From: Cytophagales bacterium
GTDB taxonomy: Bacteria > Bacteroidota > Bacteroidia > Cytophagales > 172606-1
Assembly: GCA_030446715.1 (NCBI GenBank)
Contig: JAUJMU010000004.1
Location: forward strand, 232,931-296,930
DNA: 64,000 nt
Reading direction: 5' to 3'
This document shows positions 7,640 through 14,024 of the stretch, piece by piece (the first letter of the stretch is position 1; each line of letters starts with the position of its first letter). The translations under genes and the position numbers were made by a program. Under the pieces are notes generated by a model. The model worked only from the letters and a program-made list of their open reading frames with translations. It made no database searches and was not told the origin of the DNA.

Positions 7640-7650
7640 CTTTTGCTTAC

Positions 7651-7743
7651 AGGTAACGGATCAACTGCTGACGCAGCCGTGCCGACTGCGCTTTGGCAAT
7701 GCGCTGGAGCGGCCCGGTTGACGTTGGTGGGCGGTGTTAGCTG
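7651..7743 (-). other. attC-like site A
   Basis: Boundary between the last two cassettes. On the minus strand it runs from CACAGCTAACACC to GATCCGTTACC. Inner arms TCAAC (7661-7665) and GTTGA (7717-7721) can pair. The core is nearly identical to site B (GCTGACGCAGCCGTGCCGACT on the plus strand), so A and B are recent copies or share a cassette lineage. Confidence 0.75.
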
Positions 7744-7746
7744 TGG

Positions 7747-8233
7747 TTATTGCTTTTGAAGAGTGACACTGTTTTTACGGTCATTATAAAAGAACCTTAA
7801 ATACTGCGAATTAACCTCAAATTCCTTGAAATGAGATACTGCTCCATCAAACATTTTTTTCCCCATCTGAGGCTCATTAATTTCTGATCCGCTAAACTCC
7901 TCAATTTTTACTTCTCGTGGTGCCTGATAAGAGAACCTCCCCCATACGGTATTGGTCGTTTTCCTACCTGTTATCTGATTGGCATCAAAGGTTAAAACTA
8001 TGTCCAATCCTCCCCATGAGTTGGCACTGTCCTGCAGTATCTGACTGTTGGCAATCAAGTCATCATAGGAAATAACTTTCCGTGTACCTGCTATTGAGGT
8101 AATTGAAGGATCATCCCTGAAATCACTTGCCGGTGGGATAACATCATCTTTTTTTGCAACCTGTCACCAGAAGCATTACTGCTGAAAACAGGGTAAATAT
8201 TATTTTCAGCGAAAGGAGTTGCCGGTCTTTCAT
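7747..8233 (-). CDS. Cassette-borne lipoprotein, single-base frame break
   Basis: Starts at ATG 8231-8233 with a lipoprotein signal (MKDRQLLSLKII followed by a hydrophobic stretch and LVTGC). The frame hits TGA right after a run of seven A (8151-8157). With six A it continues KKDDVIPPASDFRDDPS and joins the open frame that ends at 7747 (stop after LQKQ). The restored protein has about 160 residues with an exported, mostly beta-like C-terminal part. Function unknown. The break is in a homopolymer, so a sequencing error is likely. Confidence 0.65.
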
Positions 8234-8319
8234 TTGTTTGATTTTAATTTGATAGTGATACTGCTGCTTTGATGACCCTTAAACTTCCGGTTGAGTTGCA
8301 GGTATTGATATTTTTTTAT

Positions 8320-8418
8320 CACAGCTAACGGATCAACTGCTGACGCAGCCGTGCCGACTGCGCTTTGGCTATGCGTTGGAGCAAGGCCGGTTGTCGTTTC
8401 AGCAGGGTGTTAGCTTCC
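8320..8418 (-). other. attC-like site B
   Basis: Separates the 7747-8233 cassette from the 8431-9045 cassette. On the minus strand it begins GGAAGCTAACACC and ends GATCCGTTAGCTGTG. It shares a 20-base core with site A. The TTAGCTGTG start matches the end of its downstream cassette at 7736-7744, and the GGAAGCTAAC end matches the start of its upstream cassette at 9058-9066. Confidence 0.75.
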
Positions 8419-8430
8419 TGGCTTCATTTT

Positions 8431-9045
8431 TCAAAAATTATCTTTACTTCTTTCCCTGCTGCATCCTTTGCCAGTACAGTTGTCTTGTGAGTGGAAGCCT
8501 TCACCCGAATGGAGAGTATAGAACACTTCTGGTTGCATTATCCCGTCTGACATTCCCACCTCTTTCTCGATCAGCCAGTTTTTCTCTACCAAAATCAACC
8601 TGCTTGCACCCATTAAGCCACCAAAAGACCTGATATCGTAATTGCTTCCCCGGTAATAAGTAACCGGCAGCAACAGGATTGCAATAAGCGGACTAGCCAC
8701 AATAAAGAAAAACATCCGTTCAATCAGGAAAGCCACGAGGGTAAAAGGGGATAGACGAGAAACAATCCAAAAATAAATCCTGCCCCATACCGACAGCCTT
8801 TTGCTAAAAAAGGCAAATATTGCCGCTCCCGTCGCATCAGTAAGCCAATCACCCGATCAGCCCATTCGCTGCGCAAGGAAGTTTTTGCTGCAAAAACTAA
8901 ATACACATCCATCGCCAGTAACAACAGTAAGGAAAAGTGGGTAATCAGTAAGGCTTTTTTTGTAAACCAAAGGCCAATCCTTCCGGATAAAAGTAACACC
9001 CAACATTACTCCCAATAAGCCAATATATATGATTACAAGTATCAT
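8431..9045 (-). pseudogene. Cassette-borne membrane protein, two frame breaks
   Basis: Three overlapping open pieces together read as one hydrophobic protein. It starts at ATG 9043-9045 (MILVIIYIGLLGVMLGVTF), continues in another frame (LLLLLAMDVYLVFAAKTS, FIFGLFLVYPL) and ends in a third (FFFIVASPLIAILLLPVTYY) with the stop at 8431. Breaks lie at about 8910-8990 and 8735-8755. The full product would have about 200 residues and three or four membrane helices. No family recognised. Either sequencing indels or a decayed cassette gene. Confidence 0.55.
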
Positions 9046-9057
9046 TATTCTTTTACT

Positions 9058-9154
9058 GGAAGCTAACGAAGCAAACACACCCGACGCCGCGGCCTCCTGC
9101 TGGGGTCTGCGCTTTGGCGGCCCGGTGGTCGGTCGTGTGTGGTGTTATGTTTCG
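9058..9154 (-). other. attC-like site C
   Basis: Inner arms are clear: ACACACCCGACG near 9075-9086 against GTCGGTCGTGTGT at 9128-9140, pairing with a few extra unpaired bases. Outer words: GAAACATAACACC on the upstream-cassette side and GCTTCGTTAGCTTCC at the start of the next cassette (minus strand). Confidence 0.78.
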
Positions 9155-9351
9155 TTATTCCTCCAACTCTATTTCAGGAAAGACTACCTCCTTAATATAG
9201 TCACTAATCGACTGCGAGGCACCTCTAATTAAATCTTTTCGTTTTACAAGTTCGGGTTTTACTCTGTTTACTATGTGTGCCTTAATAAATTCTCCTTGGG
9301 AGAATATTCGAAGAGTTGGCTAAATTATCGTAGAGTAATACACAAAGTGCT

Positions 9352-9685
9352 TCAAGGCAACGTATTAATCTTCGCTGGCAAATACTGCTTCTCATCGATG
9401 GCCTGTAATATCATGGGCAGATATTCTACCTCTGCTAGAAGTAATTCTTCATCTTGCTCCATTAAGGTCAGTTGAAGATTATTGCCCCATATATCGAGTA
9501 ACTGCTTGTCTAACTTTAACAAGGGGATACGATACAGATTTACATTCAGTTGATTTACAGGCTGGGCATTCTTTTTTCCAAAGAGCCGCAGAGTCGTATA
9601 AGTGAAAAGCAGCATCCATTTTAGCCAACTCTATTGTCTCTTCATAACCACAAGTTTTACAACTACGGGTGACCCAAAAATCCAT
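9352..9685 (-). pseudogene. Cassette-borne zinc-ribbon protein, one frame break
   Basis: The N-terminal frame (MDFWVTRSCKTCGYEETIE, then KKECPACKS) has two CxxC pairs spaced like a zinc ribbon, and stops at 9479. The second frame, from about 9540, continues IPLLKLDKQLLDIWGNNLQL to a stop at 9352. The natural protein is the two joined, about 110 residues, with one base lost or gained near 9530-9545. It may bind metal and contact nucleic acid or protein, but no family is recognised. The start lies 30 bases inside the cassette. Confidence 0.55.
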
Positions 9686-9706
9686 TCATTTTATTTTTTT
9701 AATGAA

Positions 9707-9829
9707 ACATAACGCATCAAACGCTGCCGTATACCGTGGCTCAAAGCTGAGGTTTTCCAGCGTTGGCTATGCGGTGAGGCACAGGATTGGCGGCCCGGTT
9801 ATCGGTCAGCGTGGTGTTACCAACAAGTT
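9707..9829 (-). other. attC-like site D
   Basis: Longest of the set at about 120 bp. Inner arms CGCTG-CCG (9724-9731) and CGG-T-CAGCG (9805-9813) pair with one extra base. Outer words: TTGTTGGTAACACC (end of the upstream cassette) and GATGCGTTATGTTTC (start of the next). The central part has GCTATGCGGTGAGGC, shared in variants with sites G and I. Confidence 0.78.
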
Positions 9830-10333: not shown

Positions 10334-10344
10334 TTGTTGGTAAC
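10334..10344 (-). other. attC-like site E, part 1 (cut by IS110)
   Basis: TTGTTGGTAAC is the start terminus of the lipoprotein cassette and matches GTTACCAACAA at 9818-9828. Normally CGTATC-type sequence would follow on the plus strand. Here the IS element intervenes and the site resumes at 11719. Confidence 0.7.
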
Positions 10345-10439
10345 CTCTAGCTTGGTGCTATATAATAATTCCAATACCCCTGTTAATACTACTATGATTT
10401 TGTGGGTAAGTGGGTAACTCTGCAAGAGTTATCCATCTT

Positions 10440-10600
10440 ATCCACAAAAAGCGACCGGTGAACTAAGCGCTAACCAGGCGAACGGTCCTACGATACGATA
10501 CAGTCCGGCTGCTTTTATTTTCAGTGAGGAGGAGATCAAATAGATTTTCGGGATAGGAGACAGCCCTAAGAGTAAAATCAGGGCAGTAGTCCAAGGCCCA
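10440..10600 (+). ncRNA. Candidate bridge RNA of the IS110 element
   Basis: Located in the left-end non-coding region. Reading 5' to 3', GCGCTAACC (10467-10475) partly resembles the left target ending GGTAAC. TACGATACG (10489-10497) contains CGATACG, the reverse complement of the right target CGTATCG (11719-11725). ATAGATTT (10540-10547) is identical to the last eight bases of the IS (11711-11718). CTAAGAG (10566-10572) is near the reverse complement of the IS left end CTCTAG. Target loop first and donor loop second is the order known for IS110 bridge RNAs. Limits of the RNA are guesses and folding was not computed. Confidence 0.5.
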
Positions 10601-10639
10601 GTATTGAGGTTTCGATTCAAGACTCACCTTTTACAAACT

Positions 10640-11682
10640 ATGAAAAAACTTTCCTTTACTCAAGCCTATGCCTTTATTTTAGGTATTGATGTTTCCAAAG
10701 AAAGCCTGGACGCGTGTCTGATCCGTACTGCTGACGGGCAGGTGTTTGAACAGAAGTTTAACAATCCCGAAGGCTTTAAGAAAATGAAAGCCTGGATGCG
10801 TCAGCAGGGCTCACAGGCAGACGCTGACACGCTTACCTGTATGGAGCACACCGGCTTGTATACCAGAAGACTGGTTCACTATCTGCTCGGCCGCAGGTGC
10901 ACGTGTGGCTGGAAAGCGCCCTGCAGATCAAGCGCAGCATGGGTCTTGTCAGGGCAAGGACGATAAGATTGATGCTCAACGGATCGCAAGATATGCCCTT
11001 TTGCAGCCCGACAAGGCCGTTTTGGTGAACCTCACTGGCACAACGCTGGAGAAACTCAAAGACCTTCAGGCCAACCGTACCCGTTTGCTCAAAGCCTTGC
11101 ACAGTTTGAAAGTGGCCATCAAAGAATTGCTCAAAGTGGACACCGAATCGGGCAAAACCCTGGAGAAAGTAAACAAACAAGCCATCCAGGGGCTCCAAAC
11201 AGCCTGGGAACAGGTGGAAGAAAAAGATGGCTGAATTCATTGAAAAGGATGATGAGCTCAAACGAAAGTACGATCTGCTCACTTCCATCAAGGGCGTAGG
11301 CAAGGTACTGGCTGTTTCCCTTCTGATTTACACCAACGGCTTTGCCAAACTACTGGATGCCCGTAAACTGGCCTGCTACAGCGGAGTGGCACCCTTTGAG
11401 CATAAAAGCGGGACGAGTGTCTTTGGACCAACCGGCGTATCCCAGTTTGCCAACAAGGACCTCAAACGGTACTGCACCTGGCCGCAATCAGCAGTGTGTG
11501 TCACAACCAGGAACTCAAGGCGTATTTCAGCGGAAAGTCAAAGAGGGGTAAAGAAAATGAGCGTGATCAACGCTGTCCGTAACAAGCTCCTTCACCAGAT
11601 CGTGGCCGTCATCAAACGCGGTACCCCTTATGAACTCCGACTCCCTGATACCATGAAACAGACTAAAGTAGAAGTTGGATAA
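10640..11682 (+). pseudogene. IS110 transposase (DEDD), multiply frame-shifted
   Basis: Starts MKKLSFTQAYAFILGIDVSKE (Asp of the first DEDD motif), then CMEHTGLY (Glu), then GKDDKIDAQRIARYAL (two Asp), and a C-terminal Transposase_20 part SIKGVGKVLAVSLL with AGVAPFE-like YSGVAPFEHKSG. Homology hops between frames near 10895, 10955, 11225, 11485 and 11535, several at short homopolymers, so no intact reading frame exists. Full length would be about 345 residues, normal for the family. Either the element is dead or the read quality here is poor. Confidence 0.8.
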
Positions 11683-11718
11683 AAAAGAGGCAATATCGCT
11701 TGCTCAAGTCATAGATTT

Positions 11719-11806
11719 CGTATCGAGTGCAGCCGTCCAACCGTGGCCTCATGCGTCAGCTCTGCGGGTTCCAGCGGCCCGGTGGCGGCCTGCACGGTGT
11801 TTGGCA
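11719..11806 (-). other. attC-like site E, part 2
   Basis: Continues the site cut by the IS. The arms GTGCAG-CCG (11727-11735) and CGG-C-CTGCAC (11786-11795) pair with one extra base. It ends with GTGTTTGGCA on the plus strand. Its sequence is closest to site F. Confidence 0.72.
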
Positions 11807-12111
11807 TACCCTTTCATCTTCATCTTTTTCTTCGTCTGGTCACGGATTCAGTCGTCTTTCCGTATTTGCTTCCGTCCCGCCAAACGTCTTTTTTATCTGT
11901 TCGATGGCTGGCGTTTTTTCACTTGCTTCTGCGTTTTCCCAAGTCACCAAACGTGTTTTATTCTTTGGTTGTCTTTCGGCAAGTTTTCCTGTTCGGTCTT
12001 GTTTTTCCTCACGCAGCCGTCTGTTCTATTCGTTCGGCTCGGCCTTGTCAATCTTTCCCGACTTTCGCTTCCTAACGCCAAACGTGTTGTTTTTTCTCCG
12101 GTTGCCACTAA
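11800..12111 (-). other. Cassette without a convincing gene, copy 1
   Basis: About 310 bp between sites E and G. On the minus strand it is purine-rich and contains the word ACGTTTGG four times at irregular spacing (for example 12080s, 11950s, 11880s). A 61-residue frame on the minus strand (12129-11944) exists but begins in the neighbouring site, and its translation is not clearly conserved in copy 2. DNA-level similarity to 12859-13179 is obvious (GGCATACCCTTTC at one end, CCGGTTGCC at the other, CCAAACGTCTTTTTxAT inside). It may encode a small RNA or a degraded protein. Confidence 0.6.
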
Positions 12112-12197
12112 CGCATCGAAAACCCACAACGGCGTGCCCTCAAGCTGGGCAATGCGGTGAGGCGGGCCGCTGGACGTTGGGTTTGGTGTTGCCTGCA
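12105..12197 (-). other. attC-like site G
   Basis: Arms AACCCACAACG (12121-12131) and CGTTGGGTT (12175-12183) pair with one extra base. Outer words: TGCAGGCAACACC (end of the GNAT cassette) and GATGCGTTAGTGGCA (start of the non-coding cassette) on the minus strand. Confidence 0.78.
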
Positions 12198-12210
12198 GTA
12201 TGTTATCCTT

Positions 12211-12747
12211 TCAATCTTGTTTATTGTATCGCTCCCTGTAGTCCTCAGCTCTGATTTCATAATAGGCCTGCTCACATCCATACTGAATTCTATGATCGAC
12301 GTATTTCATTCCGATTTTCTCCAGTACCCTTCGTGATGCGATGTTATCCGGATGAGTGGATGAGACAATTTTAGTCAGGTGTAAAGTCTCAAAACCATAC
12401 TTTAGCAAACCAACCGATGCTTCGGTTGCGTATCCCTGGTTCCAGTATTGTTTCAGAAAGCGGTAGCCTACTTCTACTTCCGTTGTATTATCATAGTGAA
12501 CCAGTCCACTTGCTCCGACAAAGCTGTTACCGTTTTTAAGCGTCGTTGCCCAAATGCCCGGAGCCTGGTTTCTTACGTAGTGTGATATGAGCATGTCTAA
12601 CTCTTTTCCCATTTGTTGTTGATCTCTCGTTGAGCCGTCCCCTACATATCTCATTATCTGAGGATCACTGTTCATCAGAAACAGGTCCGAGTAATCATCT
12701 TTGTGAATTTGGCGAAGTAGTAGTCTTTCCGTCTCCAAGATTTTCAT
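12211..12747 (-). CDS. GNAT N-acetyltransferase, RimJ/RimL type (178 aa), in a cassette
   Basis: Begins MKILETERLLLRQIHKDDY, the typical start of acetyltransferase_3 proteins. It has the acetyl-CoA region around GYRFLKQYWNQGYATEA (residues 92-108, with the Q/RxxGxA loop as NQGYAT) and SSTHPDNIASRRVLEKIGM further on. It would move an acetyl group from acetyl-CoA to an amine such as a protein N-terminus or a small molecule. GNATs are among the commonest cargo of integron cassettes, which fits its setting. The cassette limits are GTTGCCTGCA words at 12188 and 12771-12780. The frame is intact. Confidence 0.88.
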   Translation of the reverse strand: MKILETERLLLRQIHKDDYSDLFLMNSDPQIMRYVGDGSTRDQQQMGKELDMLISHYVRNQAPGIWATTLKNGNSFVGASGLVHYDNTTEVEVGYRFLKQYWNQGYATEASVGLLKYGFETLHLTKIVSSTHPDNIASRRVLEKIGMKYVDHRIQYGCEQAYYEIRAEDYRERYNKQD

Positions 12748-12770
12748 CAGTTACGTCTTATGAGTTCTAT

Positions 12771-12870
12771 TGCAGGCAACGTATCAAGTGCAGCCGGAAC
12801 CGTGTGCTACTGGCGTCGGCTTTGCGGTGGAGCGCACCGGTTACCGGACTGCACGGTGTTGTGGGCATAC
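12771..12870 (-). other. attC-like site F
   Basis: Best-formed site of the set: GTGCAG-CCGG-AACC (12788-12801) pairs with GGTT-A-CCGG-A-CTGCAC (12839-12853), with two extra single bases on one strand. Extrahelical bases of this kind mark the recombinogenic strand in true attC sites. Confidence 0.8.
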
Positions 12871-13179
12871 CCTTTCTCCTTTTATTCTTTTTTCATTTCA
12901 TTCGTTTCCTTCCGGCTCTCGTGGTTTCTTCAAGCCACTTTCCCGGCCGCCAAACGTCTTTTTGATTCATTCGCTGACTTACGACTTTTTCATTTGTTTC
13001 TGTATTGTTTCTGGTCGGAGCCGTTTTCATCCATTCGTTGGCTTCCGCTAAAATCTCTTGCTCTCGGGCTTTTCCGTTTCACAGCCGTTCAATTTCTTCC
13101 GTTCGGCTCGGAACTTTCTGGCTTCTCGTGCTTTAGCTTCCCCACACCAAACGTCTTTGTTTTTCCGGTTGCCCACAAC
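12859..13179 (-). other. Cassette without a convincing gene, copy 2
   Basis: About 320 bp with termini GTTGTGGGCA and TGCCCACAAC. Homologous at DNA level to the 11800-12111 cassette. It carries ACGTTTGG words near 12955 and 13150 and an AAGAGCCGAACGG-like block. A minus-strand frame of 62 residues (13236-13048) again starts in the neighbouring site. It is similarly purine-rich on the minus strand. No protein family recognised. Confidence 0.6.
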
Positions 13180-13268
13180 GTAACAAATACCCCCGCACAC
13201 CGTGTGCTCCTGCTGTGGCCCTGCGCTTTGGCGCACCGGTTGTCGGCGGGTGTGGTGTTATGGGCAAT
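13170..13268 (-). other. attC-like site H
   Basis: Arms CCCGCACACCG (13193-13203) and CGGCGGGTGTGG (13244-13255) pair imperfectly. Outer words: TTGCCCATAACACC (end of the next upstream cassette) and TTACGTTGTGGGCA (start of the non-coding cassette) on the minus strand. Confidence 0.76.
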
Positions 13269-13289
13269 TCTTACTCTTTAAATCCTTTT

Positions 13290-13901
13290 TTATTCTTGTT
13301 GCGTGATTTCTGATTCAACACCATATTTTACCCCGGCTTGGGCAAAGAAGGCTTTCAGTAAGTCAAACTTCTCGGCACAAAAATCACCGGCATTGACCTT
13401 CTTTGAGCTTACCCGGTATTGGTCACAAGCGAAACAAAGTTCAATATAAGCAAAGCCTCTCCCTTTGTCATCTTCAAAAACAATGGCGTTTCTGGGTTCG
13501 TAGCATCTTGCTTTAGAATATAAATGGAATACTCCTCGATAACCTGTATTGTAGAGGATATCAGTGAGCGAATCCACCTGAGCCGCTGAAAGCGTCTCCA
13601 CCTGCTCTACATTAGAGTAGTCAACGTAGCCCCTGCGGGTAGGTACTTGCCCACCCATCACTACACCGGGTGGTTGTTTAAAGGAGATGAGTTTGATGTG
13701 TTTTGCTTTGCTGAATGGCAGAAAAGTTAATCTTTCTTCAGGTGAGTATTTGTCTTGCCGAATGCAGTGGAAGTTCCGTTTACTTGCAGCTTCCTCTTCA
13801 TCGGTTAACGGCCTTACTGGACCCGGCAATGGCCGAAGTTGCCCATAGGAAAGGAAGGGCAACATAACAATTATCAGAGAGAATATTTTACCTATCGTCA
13901 T
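13290..13901 (-). CDS. Cassette-borne secreted hypothetical protein (about 203 aa)
   Basis: The start chosen is MTIGKIFSLIIVMLPFLSYG at 13901, which gives a clean signal peptide. An upstream ATG at 13934 falls inside the cassette terminus and is less likely. The mature part contains PPGVVMGGQVPTRRGYVDYS, a CYEPRNAIVF segment and an ELCFACDQYRVSS segment (a CxxC pair). It is probably periplasmic or secreted. No family recognised. The cassette termini match over 12 bases (GTTATGGGCAAT), the longest in the array. Confidence 0.65.
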   Translation of the reverse strand: MTIGKIFSLIIVMLPFLSYGQLRPLPGPVRPLTDEEEAASKRNFHCIRQDKYSPEERLTFLPFSKAKHIKLISFKQPPGVVMGGQVPTRRGYVDYSNVEQVETLSAAQVDSLTDILYNTGYRGVFHLYSKARCYEPRNAIVFEDDKGRGFAYIELCFACDQYRVSSKKVNAGDFCAEKFDLLKAFFAQAGVKYGVESEITQQE

Positions 13902-13927
13902 CAATGTTCGTCGCTTATTGCTTCTAT

Positions 13928-14024
13928 TGCCCATAACGGAACATGGCCACCCGGCGGCATCGCCTCCAGTGTTAGCAATGCGGTAAGGCGGCGTGCTGAC
14001 CGGCTTGGCTGGTGTTATAGCCTA
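13928..14024 (-). other. attC-like site I
   Basis: Arms GCCA-CCCGG (13946-13954) and CCGGCTTGGC (14000-14009) pair imperfectly. Outer words: GGCTATAACACC (end of the first cassette) and GTTCCGTTATGGGC (start of the second) on the minus strand. The centre GCAATGCGGTAAGGCGG is shared with sites D and G. Confidence 0.76.

What the first reader, a model, noticed from the sequence alone, without database searches (positions are those of the whole stretch)
10440..10600. Readable bridge-RNA guides aimed at attC-like targets
In the IS left end, CGATACG (10491-10497) is the reverse complement of the right target CGTATCG, and ATAGATTT (10540-10547) is identical to the IS right terminus. The other two guide positions match weakly (TAAC; CTAAGAG against CTCTAG). 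Order and polarity agree with IS110 bridge RNAs (target loop, then donor loop). If right, this is a bridge RNA naturally programmed for integron-type sites.
Basis: partly seen in the sequence, partly recalled or inferred. Interest (0 to 1): 0.75.

Follow-up and report, generated by a model that had tools for sequence, protein, structure and literature searches.

The report
IS110 bridge RNA aimed at attC
A broken jumping gene in a Cytophagales bacterium carries what looks like a guide RNA whose short guide words match the integron-like cassette site in which it sits, and relatives in other bacteria carry changed guides that tend to match their own, different cassette sites.

Summary
Window 10345-11719 is an IS110-type element: its transposase is broken, but an upstream noncoding region has bridge-RNA architecture. 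I compared 19 copies from 16 Cytophagales genomes (18 with both junctions readable). Covariation supports a two-internal-loop RNA. The right target guide (RTG) matches its own right flank at 63 of 90 positions, against 38.2 (sd 4.5) when guides are dealt to other copies' flanks (p 5e-5); this holds with one copy per distinct guide, and inside clade f12. The left target guide (LTG) follows its flank overall (p 3e-4), but not inside f12. Two corrections: the right donor guide is TTGAGG (10604-10609), not CTAAGAG; the empty target reads AAY|G, the R' end of an attC-like site. The window holds nine such sites in one orientation; a model partly trained on them finds 98 in the genome. XerA/IntI-like tyrosine recombinases lacking the IntI-specific stretch head arrays in three of seven stretches read around such genes. 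attC targeting by IS1111-group guide RNAs is published. New, as far as my searches show, are an upstream-RNA IS110 lineage doing it, guide drift tracking attC diversity, and the unusual integron-like platform. No activity was tested.

The parts
10345..11719 (+). IS110-type element, CTCTAG...ATAGATTTC, no target duplication
   Evidence: Ends set by comparing 19 copies and empty attC-like sites that read AAYG without an extra base
10338..10344 (+). left half of the target (TGGTAAC), reverse complement of the R' box GTTACCA
11720..11808 (+). right half of the target: the rest of the attC-like site (GTATCGAGTGCAGCC...)
   Evidence: R2 hit 11711-11808, 60.0 bits; this site is in the training set of R2
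10398..10450 (+). 5' hairpin of the bridge RNA
   Evidence: fold of 10398-10632, z -4.45; hairpin sequence shared with G003/G004 copies
10450..10513 (+). target-binding loop: stem 10450-10458 / 10505-10513 around the internal loop
   Evidence: helix 1, 98.2% of cells paired, 3 pairs with two-sided change
10467..10474 (+). left target guide (GCGCTAAC)
   Evidence: matches left flank GGTAAC 5 of 6; follows the flank across all copies, not within f12
10491..10497 (+). right target guide (CGATACG, reverse complement CGTATCG)
   Evidence: 7 of 7 with its own right flank; permutation p 5e-5 over 18 copies
10526..10627 (+). [quoted passage not shown]
   Evidence: helices 3-5; window-specific apical insertion inside
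10540..10547 (+). left donor guide ATAGATTT, identical to the IS right end
   Evidence: ATAGATTTT in 19 of 19 copies; right-end word in 18 of 19
10604..10609 (+). right donor guide TTGAGG (reverse complement CCTCAA) against left end CCTC
10640..11682 (+). IS110 transposase pseudogene (PF01548 and PF02371 pieces in separate frames)
   Evidence: L023, L012, L006 and L020 have intact frames of 344, 349, 340 and 347 aa; L010 has none of 250 aa or more
7649..9825 (+). four attC-like sites: 7649-7745, 8321-8418, 9059-9153, 9705-9825
   Evidence: R2 hits 47.9-75.4 bits; the first three were not used to build R2
12104..14023 (+). four attC-like sites: 12104-12197, 12772-12867, 13171-13266, 13929-14023
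   Evidence: R2 hits 84.8-94.1 bits, all four used to build R2; repeats

Best explanation
10345-11719 is a decayed IS110-type insertion sequence with an upstream bridge RNA. The RNA's target-binding loop is naturally programmed for one end of attC-like cassette sites: the left guide reads the R'-box complement (YYYAAY) and the right guide reads the next bases (YG plus about five). The donor loop reads the IS's own right end (ATAGATTT) and left end (CCTC). An active relative would circularise, pair both guides at an attC-like site and insert at AAY|G, splitting the R' box from the rest of the hairpin. Shown from sequence: element, ends, target position, RNA architecture, guide-target covariation, cassette arrays. 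Inferred: transcription, circularisation, RNA-guided recombination, loss of cassette mobility at the split site. This copy's transposase is broken, so it should not move by itself.
For: IS110 domains. The RNA region is at the left end in 19 of 19 copies. Two-loop RNA: 26 cells with two-sided change against 9.8 shuffled, 0 of 500 shuffles reach it. RTG to own flank 63 of 90 against 38.2 sd 4.46; within the 13 f12 copies 43 of 65 against 31.1, p 0.001; with one copy for each of 11 distinct guides median p 2.5e-4, worst of 50 draws 0.0017. LTG 92 of 108 against 83.0 sd 2.3, p 3e-4. Matching peaks only at offset 0: 63 of 90, next best 38 over offsets -6 to 24. LTG and flank changed together: CATAAT in L037, GCCAAC in L064, AAT in L019, L010 and L037. 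Guides fit the attC population of their own clade better than the other clade's in 5 of 5 f1 copies and in 11 of 14 f12 copies; L057, L058 and L066 are the exceptions. A minus-strand ORF of at least 100 codons starts within 75 nt left of the IS in 18 of 19 copies, against 21% of 7,400 random positions. Right flanks not used in training score as attC-like: L022, L029, L039, L059, L061 by R1 (32.7-59.1 bits, 5 of 5), L002, L003 and L037 by R2 (22.6-62.4 bits).
Against: LTG covariation is not significant within f12 (66 of 78 against 64.8, p 0.39), and RTG within the five f1 copies is borderline (20 of 25 against 15.0, p 0.05). The permutations ignore the tree. L057, L060, L064 and L065 match at only 2 of 5 RTG positions. 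Of the f1 right flanks not used in training, L012 has no R2 hit and L019 only 11.9 bits, E 0.2. Unconstrained folding of the window RNA pairs the guides: mean unpaired probability LTG 0.54, RTG 0.32, LDG 0.38, RDG 0.11. A naive test for an R-box partner in the right flank was not significant (108 of 152 against 105.4, p 0.23). No Rfam match. Cores differ from IS621: junctions read YC left and CG right, not one shared dinucleotide.
Confidence: 0.9

Rival explanations
1. The words match by chance or by shared clade composition: an ordinary IS110 whose guides are not readable.
For: Short words; several copies match poorly (L057, L060, L064, L065).
Against: Single-copy shuffles give both words in order in 1 of 20,000; permutation p 5e-5 overall, 0.001 within f12, median 2.5e-4 with distinct guides; only offset 0 matches.
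Confidence: 0.03
2. The element targets a palindromic repeat (REP-like or any hairpin), and attC-likeness is incidental.
For: IS110/IS1111 elements are known to hit REP hairpins; no IntI above the curated cut-off in 16 of 16 genomes.
Against: Sites have AAC/AAT...GTT ends, lie between same-strand genes at cassette spacing, form long one-orientation arrays, and in L107, L108 and L112 the array starts at a recombinase gene.
Confidence: 0.12
3. It works through a structure-recognising or protein-only route: the transposase recognises attC hairpins and the guides merely co-evolve.
For: ISKpn4 and this element both sit at one end of a potentially folded attC site.
Against: Per-copy agreement of guide and flank bases is unexplained; published relatives are RNA-guided, some on linear targets.
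Confidence: 0.04

Closest known systems
IS621 / IS110 bridge RNA systems (Durrant et al. 2024, PMC11208160; passages and section 7 read)
   Same: IS110 recombinase plus noncoding RNA with a target loop and a donor loop; left guides pair with the bottom strand, right guides with the top strand
   Different: Target is an attC-like R' box, not REP; junction dinucleotides are not the same at both ends (YC left, CG right)
ISKpn4 and ISPst6 (also ISPa25, by comparison) of the IS1111-attC group (Siddiquee et al. 2024, PMC11187229; abstract, passages, sections 12 and 13 read; Tetu & Holmes 2008 not held)
   Same: Transposase-bound guide RNA with matches to one end of integron attC sites
   Different: IS1111 elements usually carry the RNA downstream of tnp and have the reverse guide order; here it is upstream with IS110 order, in Bacteroidota
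ISEc21 and ISMch6 (PMC11187229, section 12 read)
   Same: IS110 type, upstream RNA; ISMch6 is a described natural redirection by guide change
   Different: ISEc21's target is in IS3-family transposase genes; one redirected copy reported, against 11 distinct right guides in 18 copies here

Membership tests
IS110 family (IS110 group) | DEDD transposase with PF01548 and PF02371 | tested here: met
   L012 and L023 pass both Pfam cut-offs and L012 passes NF033542; each of two window pieces passes one Pfam model, and the window piece scanned is below the NF033542 cut-off (57.6 of 140)
IS110 family (IS110 group) | long noncoding region upstream of tnp (IS1111: usually downstream) | tested here: met
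   RNA region at the left end in 19 of 19 copies; tnp frame downstream of it read in the window, L006, L012, L020 and L023
IS110 bridge RNA | two internal loops, target loop before donor loop | tested here: met
   covariation in 17 sequences; but not the minimum-energy fold of the window RNA alone
IS110 bridge RNA | guides complementary to target halves | tested here: met
   permutation tests; LTG not significant inside f12
IS110 bridge RNA | same core dinucleotide in donor and target | tested here: not met
   left junction YC, right junction CG; empty sites YG. A one-base core or a mismatched core would explain it; the circle junction was not seen
IS110 bridge RNA | RNA is made, binds the transposase, guides recombination | not testable with these tools
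   needs experiments
integron attC site | AAC...GTT boxes around an imperfect hairpin, between same-strand genes, in tandem | tested here: met
   exceptions among the IS flanks: L012 (no R2 hit), L019 (weak), L061 (no far GTT box)
integron attC site | full RYYYAAC/GTTRRRY consensus (recalled) | tested here: inconclusive
   AAC or AAT and GTT hold in most sites, the flanking letters only in part; R-box partner test p 0.23
integron | IntI integrase with its specific insertion | tested here: not met
   TIGR02249 over its cut-off in 0 of 16 genomes; best hits skip model positions about 180-240; place of the IntI-specific insertion recalled

The most novel reading that the evidence does not exclude
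Cytophagales carry a large, largely unrecognised integron-like system: attC-like cassette arrays run by a XerA/IntI-like tyrosine recombinase that lacks the IntI-specific insertion and has an N-terminal extension of about 200-320 residues. A lineage of IS110 elements parasitises it, its bridge-RNA guides drifting to follow the attC repertoire of each host.
Probability: 0.5. Interest if true: 0.75.

Novelty: new variant of a known kind. Interest (0 to 1): 0.6.

Why it matters
It gives a natural, many-copy record of bridge-RNA guides changing in step with their targets, in a group other than the one where attC targeting was published. That makes guide-target rules (guide length, tolerated mismatches, core rules) readable from genomes alone. 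It also points to integron-like cassette arrays in Cytophagales that IntI-based searches would probably score as integrase-less.

Tried and rejected
Rfam scan: no match at gathering cut-offs. TIGR02249 in the own genome at E 0.001 was useless as a test, because 14 of 14 control genomes rang too; repeated at 1e-25 (1 of 14 controls rings). An orthologous empty site for L012 in G004, G005 and G006 was sought, but similarity stops right of the insertion point, so the empty target rests on paralogous attC-like sites. The gapped pattern for empty attC found nothing in 204 genomes; the pattern was probably too narrow. The R-box partner test was not significant. Model R1 (f12 sites) does not see the window's sites, hence R2. 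Rejected: CTAAGAG as right donor guide. Rejected: L004, L008 and L014 as copies of the element; by eye they are lone hairpins. Not used in the guide statistics: copies or fragments with one end only (L002, L003, L013, L015/L041, L022, L027, L028, L029, L039, L067-L073), and L059, whose right end is altered. No null was computed for the distance between recombinase and arrays.

Full report
The element. Window 10345-11719 is an IS110-type element: two pieces of its transposase match PF01548 and PF02371, the intact relative L012 passes NF033542, and the window gene is split over frames. Named records were met for relatives: Rhodocytophaga aerolata, Pontibacter diazotrophicus, P. pamirensis and an uncultured Pontibacter. 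I equate these with G003, G487, G184 and G370 only by contig coordinates.

Copies. DNA searches of 8, 390 and 204 genomes (the groups overlap) gave 19 copies with both ends held, from 16 genomes: the window; L010, L012, L037 (G003); L019 (G004); and 14 from 13 genomes of family f12 (L020, L054-L066). In all 19 the RNA region is at the left end. Left junctions read ...AAC or ...AAT | CTTTAG (window CTCTAG; L064 CTATAG). Right junctions read ATAGATTTC | G in 18; L059's right end is altered and was left out of the guide tests.

RNA architecture. In 17 aligned RNAs a structure with two internal loops keeps 95.5% of cells paired, against 26-51% when the partners are slid, with 26 cells changed on both sides against 9.8 shuffled (the structure was in part derived from this alignment). 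The target loop is closed by a 10-pair stem and capped by AGG/CCT; the donor loop is closed by stems of 5 and 4 pairs and capped by GGG/CCC. LTG, RTG, LDG and RDG fall inside the loops. The window RNA alone prefers another fold (-78.6 against -76.1 with two of the conserved stems enforced), in which the guides are largely paired.

Guides and targets. RTG reads, as reverse complement, CG plus five bases; the next bases are a constant TAG. Per copy (guide/flank): window TATCG/TATCG; L020 GCTTT/GCTTT; L063 GTCTG/GTCTG; L058 GCTCT/GCTCG; L061 GTCTG/GTCTA; L066 TCTAA/TCTAG; L056 GACTG/GACTT; L019, L037, L010 GACCA against GAGCA, AACCA, GAACA; L012 AATCA/AATAG; L054, L055 GACTG/GATTA; L062 GTCTG/GCCTC; weak are L057 TCTAA/GCTCG, L060 GCTGT/GTTAG, L064 GTTGG/GACTG, L065 GTTAT/GACTT. 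The sum is 63 of 90; 20,000 permutations give 38.2 sd 4.46, none as high. Clade f1 alone (5 copies): 20 of 25, p 0.05; f12 alone (13 copies): 43 of 65, p 0.001. With one copy for each of 11 distinct guides the median p is 2.5e-4 and the worst of 50 draws 0.0017. LTG: 92 of 108 against 83.0, p 3e-4; f1 p 0.03; f12 p 0.39. The permutations ignore the tree; the within-clade and distinct-guide versions are a partial answer to that.

The donor side. LDG ATAGATTTT occurs in 19 of 19 copies. The window's right donor word is TTGAGG at 10604-10609, matching its divergent left end CCTC; most other copies have AAAGG or AAGG against CCTT or TCTT, with L063 and L064 fitting less well.

The target is attC-like. 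Flanks joined across the IS give sites that start ...AACG or ...AATG and, in 12 of 13 f12 cases (by my reading; L061 lacks it), have a GTT box at the far end of a hairpin. A minus-strand ORF of at least 100 codons starts within 75 nt left of the IS in 18 of 19 copies against 21% of random positions. A minus-strand ORF of at least 50 codons ends within 220 nt right of it in 15 of 19. So the IS sits at the R' end, next to the integron crossover point (R' naming and crossover point recalled). Empty sites: I gave the script the 36 best of 60 hits and the 8 empty window sites. A box was found in 43 of 44: 37 read AAC and 6 AAT, all six in G004; the next base is G in 40 of 43 (in L113:11318 the script picked a wrong box). 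Of 13 f12 hits given, 11 had a box and all 11 read AACG. The AAT kind is what L019, L010 and L037 entered, with AAT guides. L115 near 2590 reads GCTAATGGACCAT, which fits L019's left guide GCTAAT and right guide GGACCAT throughout.

Models of the sites. R1 (20 f12 sites) finds 13-58 sites per f12 genome at E 0.01; R2 (7 f1 sites) finds 98 in G000 at E 0.001. At most 150 candidates were scored per genome, and both models are partly trained on IS-split sites. Right flanks that were not in training: L022, L029, L039, L059, L061 score 32.7-59.1 bits with R1 (5 of 5); with R2, L002 62.4, L003 36.2, L037 22.6, L019 11.9 (E 0.2), L012 none. Eight empty sites plus the split one lie in the window in one orientation; three of them (7649, 8321, 9059) were not in training. 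G000 has a further array with 29 hits in one orientation, a few overlapping, in L113/L114.

The platform. None of 16 genomes has an IntI over the curated cut-off. Seven stretches around IntI/Xer-like genes were read (L107-L112 and L116). In L107, L108 and L112 an intact tyrosine recombinase of 481-596 residues heads an array on the same strand. In L109 the nearest site is about 5 kb away, L111 has no site, in L110 the contig ends about 0.2 kb after the gene, and in L116 the gene looks broken beside an array. NF040815 ('site-specific tyrosine recombinase/integron integrase') passes its cut-off for L107 and L112, not for L108. The closest solved structures to the L112 protein are XerA, a XerC-like protein and IntI4. 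TIGR02249 aligns without model positions about 180-240, where the IntI-specific insertion lies (recalled). Pfam finds nothing in the N-terminal extension of L107, L108 and L111. By my reading of the lists, 14 of the 23 such genes whose first segment scores over 100 bits have a listed site within about 8 kb; the lists are truncated, several of the rest lie near contig ends, and no null was computed.

What is known. Transposase-bound guide RNAs matching attC are published for the IS1111-group elements ISKpn4 and ISPst6, with downstream RNA and reversed guide order; natural redirection of an IS110 relative (ISMch6) is published too (PMC11187229). Guide-target concordance over many IS110s is published (PMC11208160). 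An IS1111-group element (ISPa21) interrupting attC in clinical integrons is reported (PMC11616780 passages). IntegronFinder 2.0 reports a complete integron in one Bacteroidetes, Salinibacter ruber (PMC9024848 passages). Searches for bridge RNA with attC, seeker RNA, IS110 with attC and integron, IS1111-attC, attC with CALIN and Bacteroidetes, integrons in Bacteroidota, and Pontibacter with integron (hit lists, with passages read in the papers named here and in PMC12444791) showed no upstream-RNA IS110 group aimed at attC. The library lacks most subscription papers.

Verdict. An IS110 bridge RNA naturally programmed for attC-like sites: well supported from sequence. The window copy is dead. The concept is not new; the lineage, the drift record and the host platform appear to be.

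Noticed in passing
L112:15132-16922 (-), L107:9898-11343 (-), L108:12881-14335 (-): Tyrosine recombinases with a long N-terminal extension head attC-like cassette arrays; they lack the IntI-specific stretch. A possible integron-like class in Cytophagales.
   Followed up: partly
L113, L114 (G000:C25 about 95-113 kb): Dense array with 29 attC-like hits in one orientation; no TIGR02249 match is listed on that contig.
   Followed up: partly
L094, L095: Distant IS110 relatives (35-36% identity) in a Bacteroidetes MAG and Mariniradius also seem to sit inside attC-like sites, at other positions; L094's candidate right guide matches GCAGCTA in its right flank (by eye).
   Followed up: no
window 11870-13170: Recurrent CCAAACGT-containing words between the attC-like sites.
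   Followed up: no
L004, L008, L014: A hairpin closely similar to the core of the bridge RNA's 5' hairpin (GTAACTCTGCAAGAGTTATCC) occurs alone elsewhere; by eye L004 lies beside an IS3-like transposase.
   Followed up: partly
L003:600-1500: A second copy in the same genome appears interrupted by a group II intron-like reverse transcriptase segment (by eye and recall).
   Followed up: no
L010:2899-3822: A tyrosine recombinase gene lies directly right of the attC-like site entered by this copy, perhaps part of an IS91-type element (recalled resemblance).
   Followed up: no
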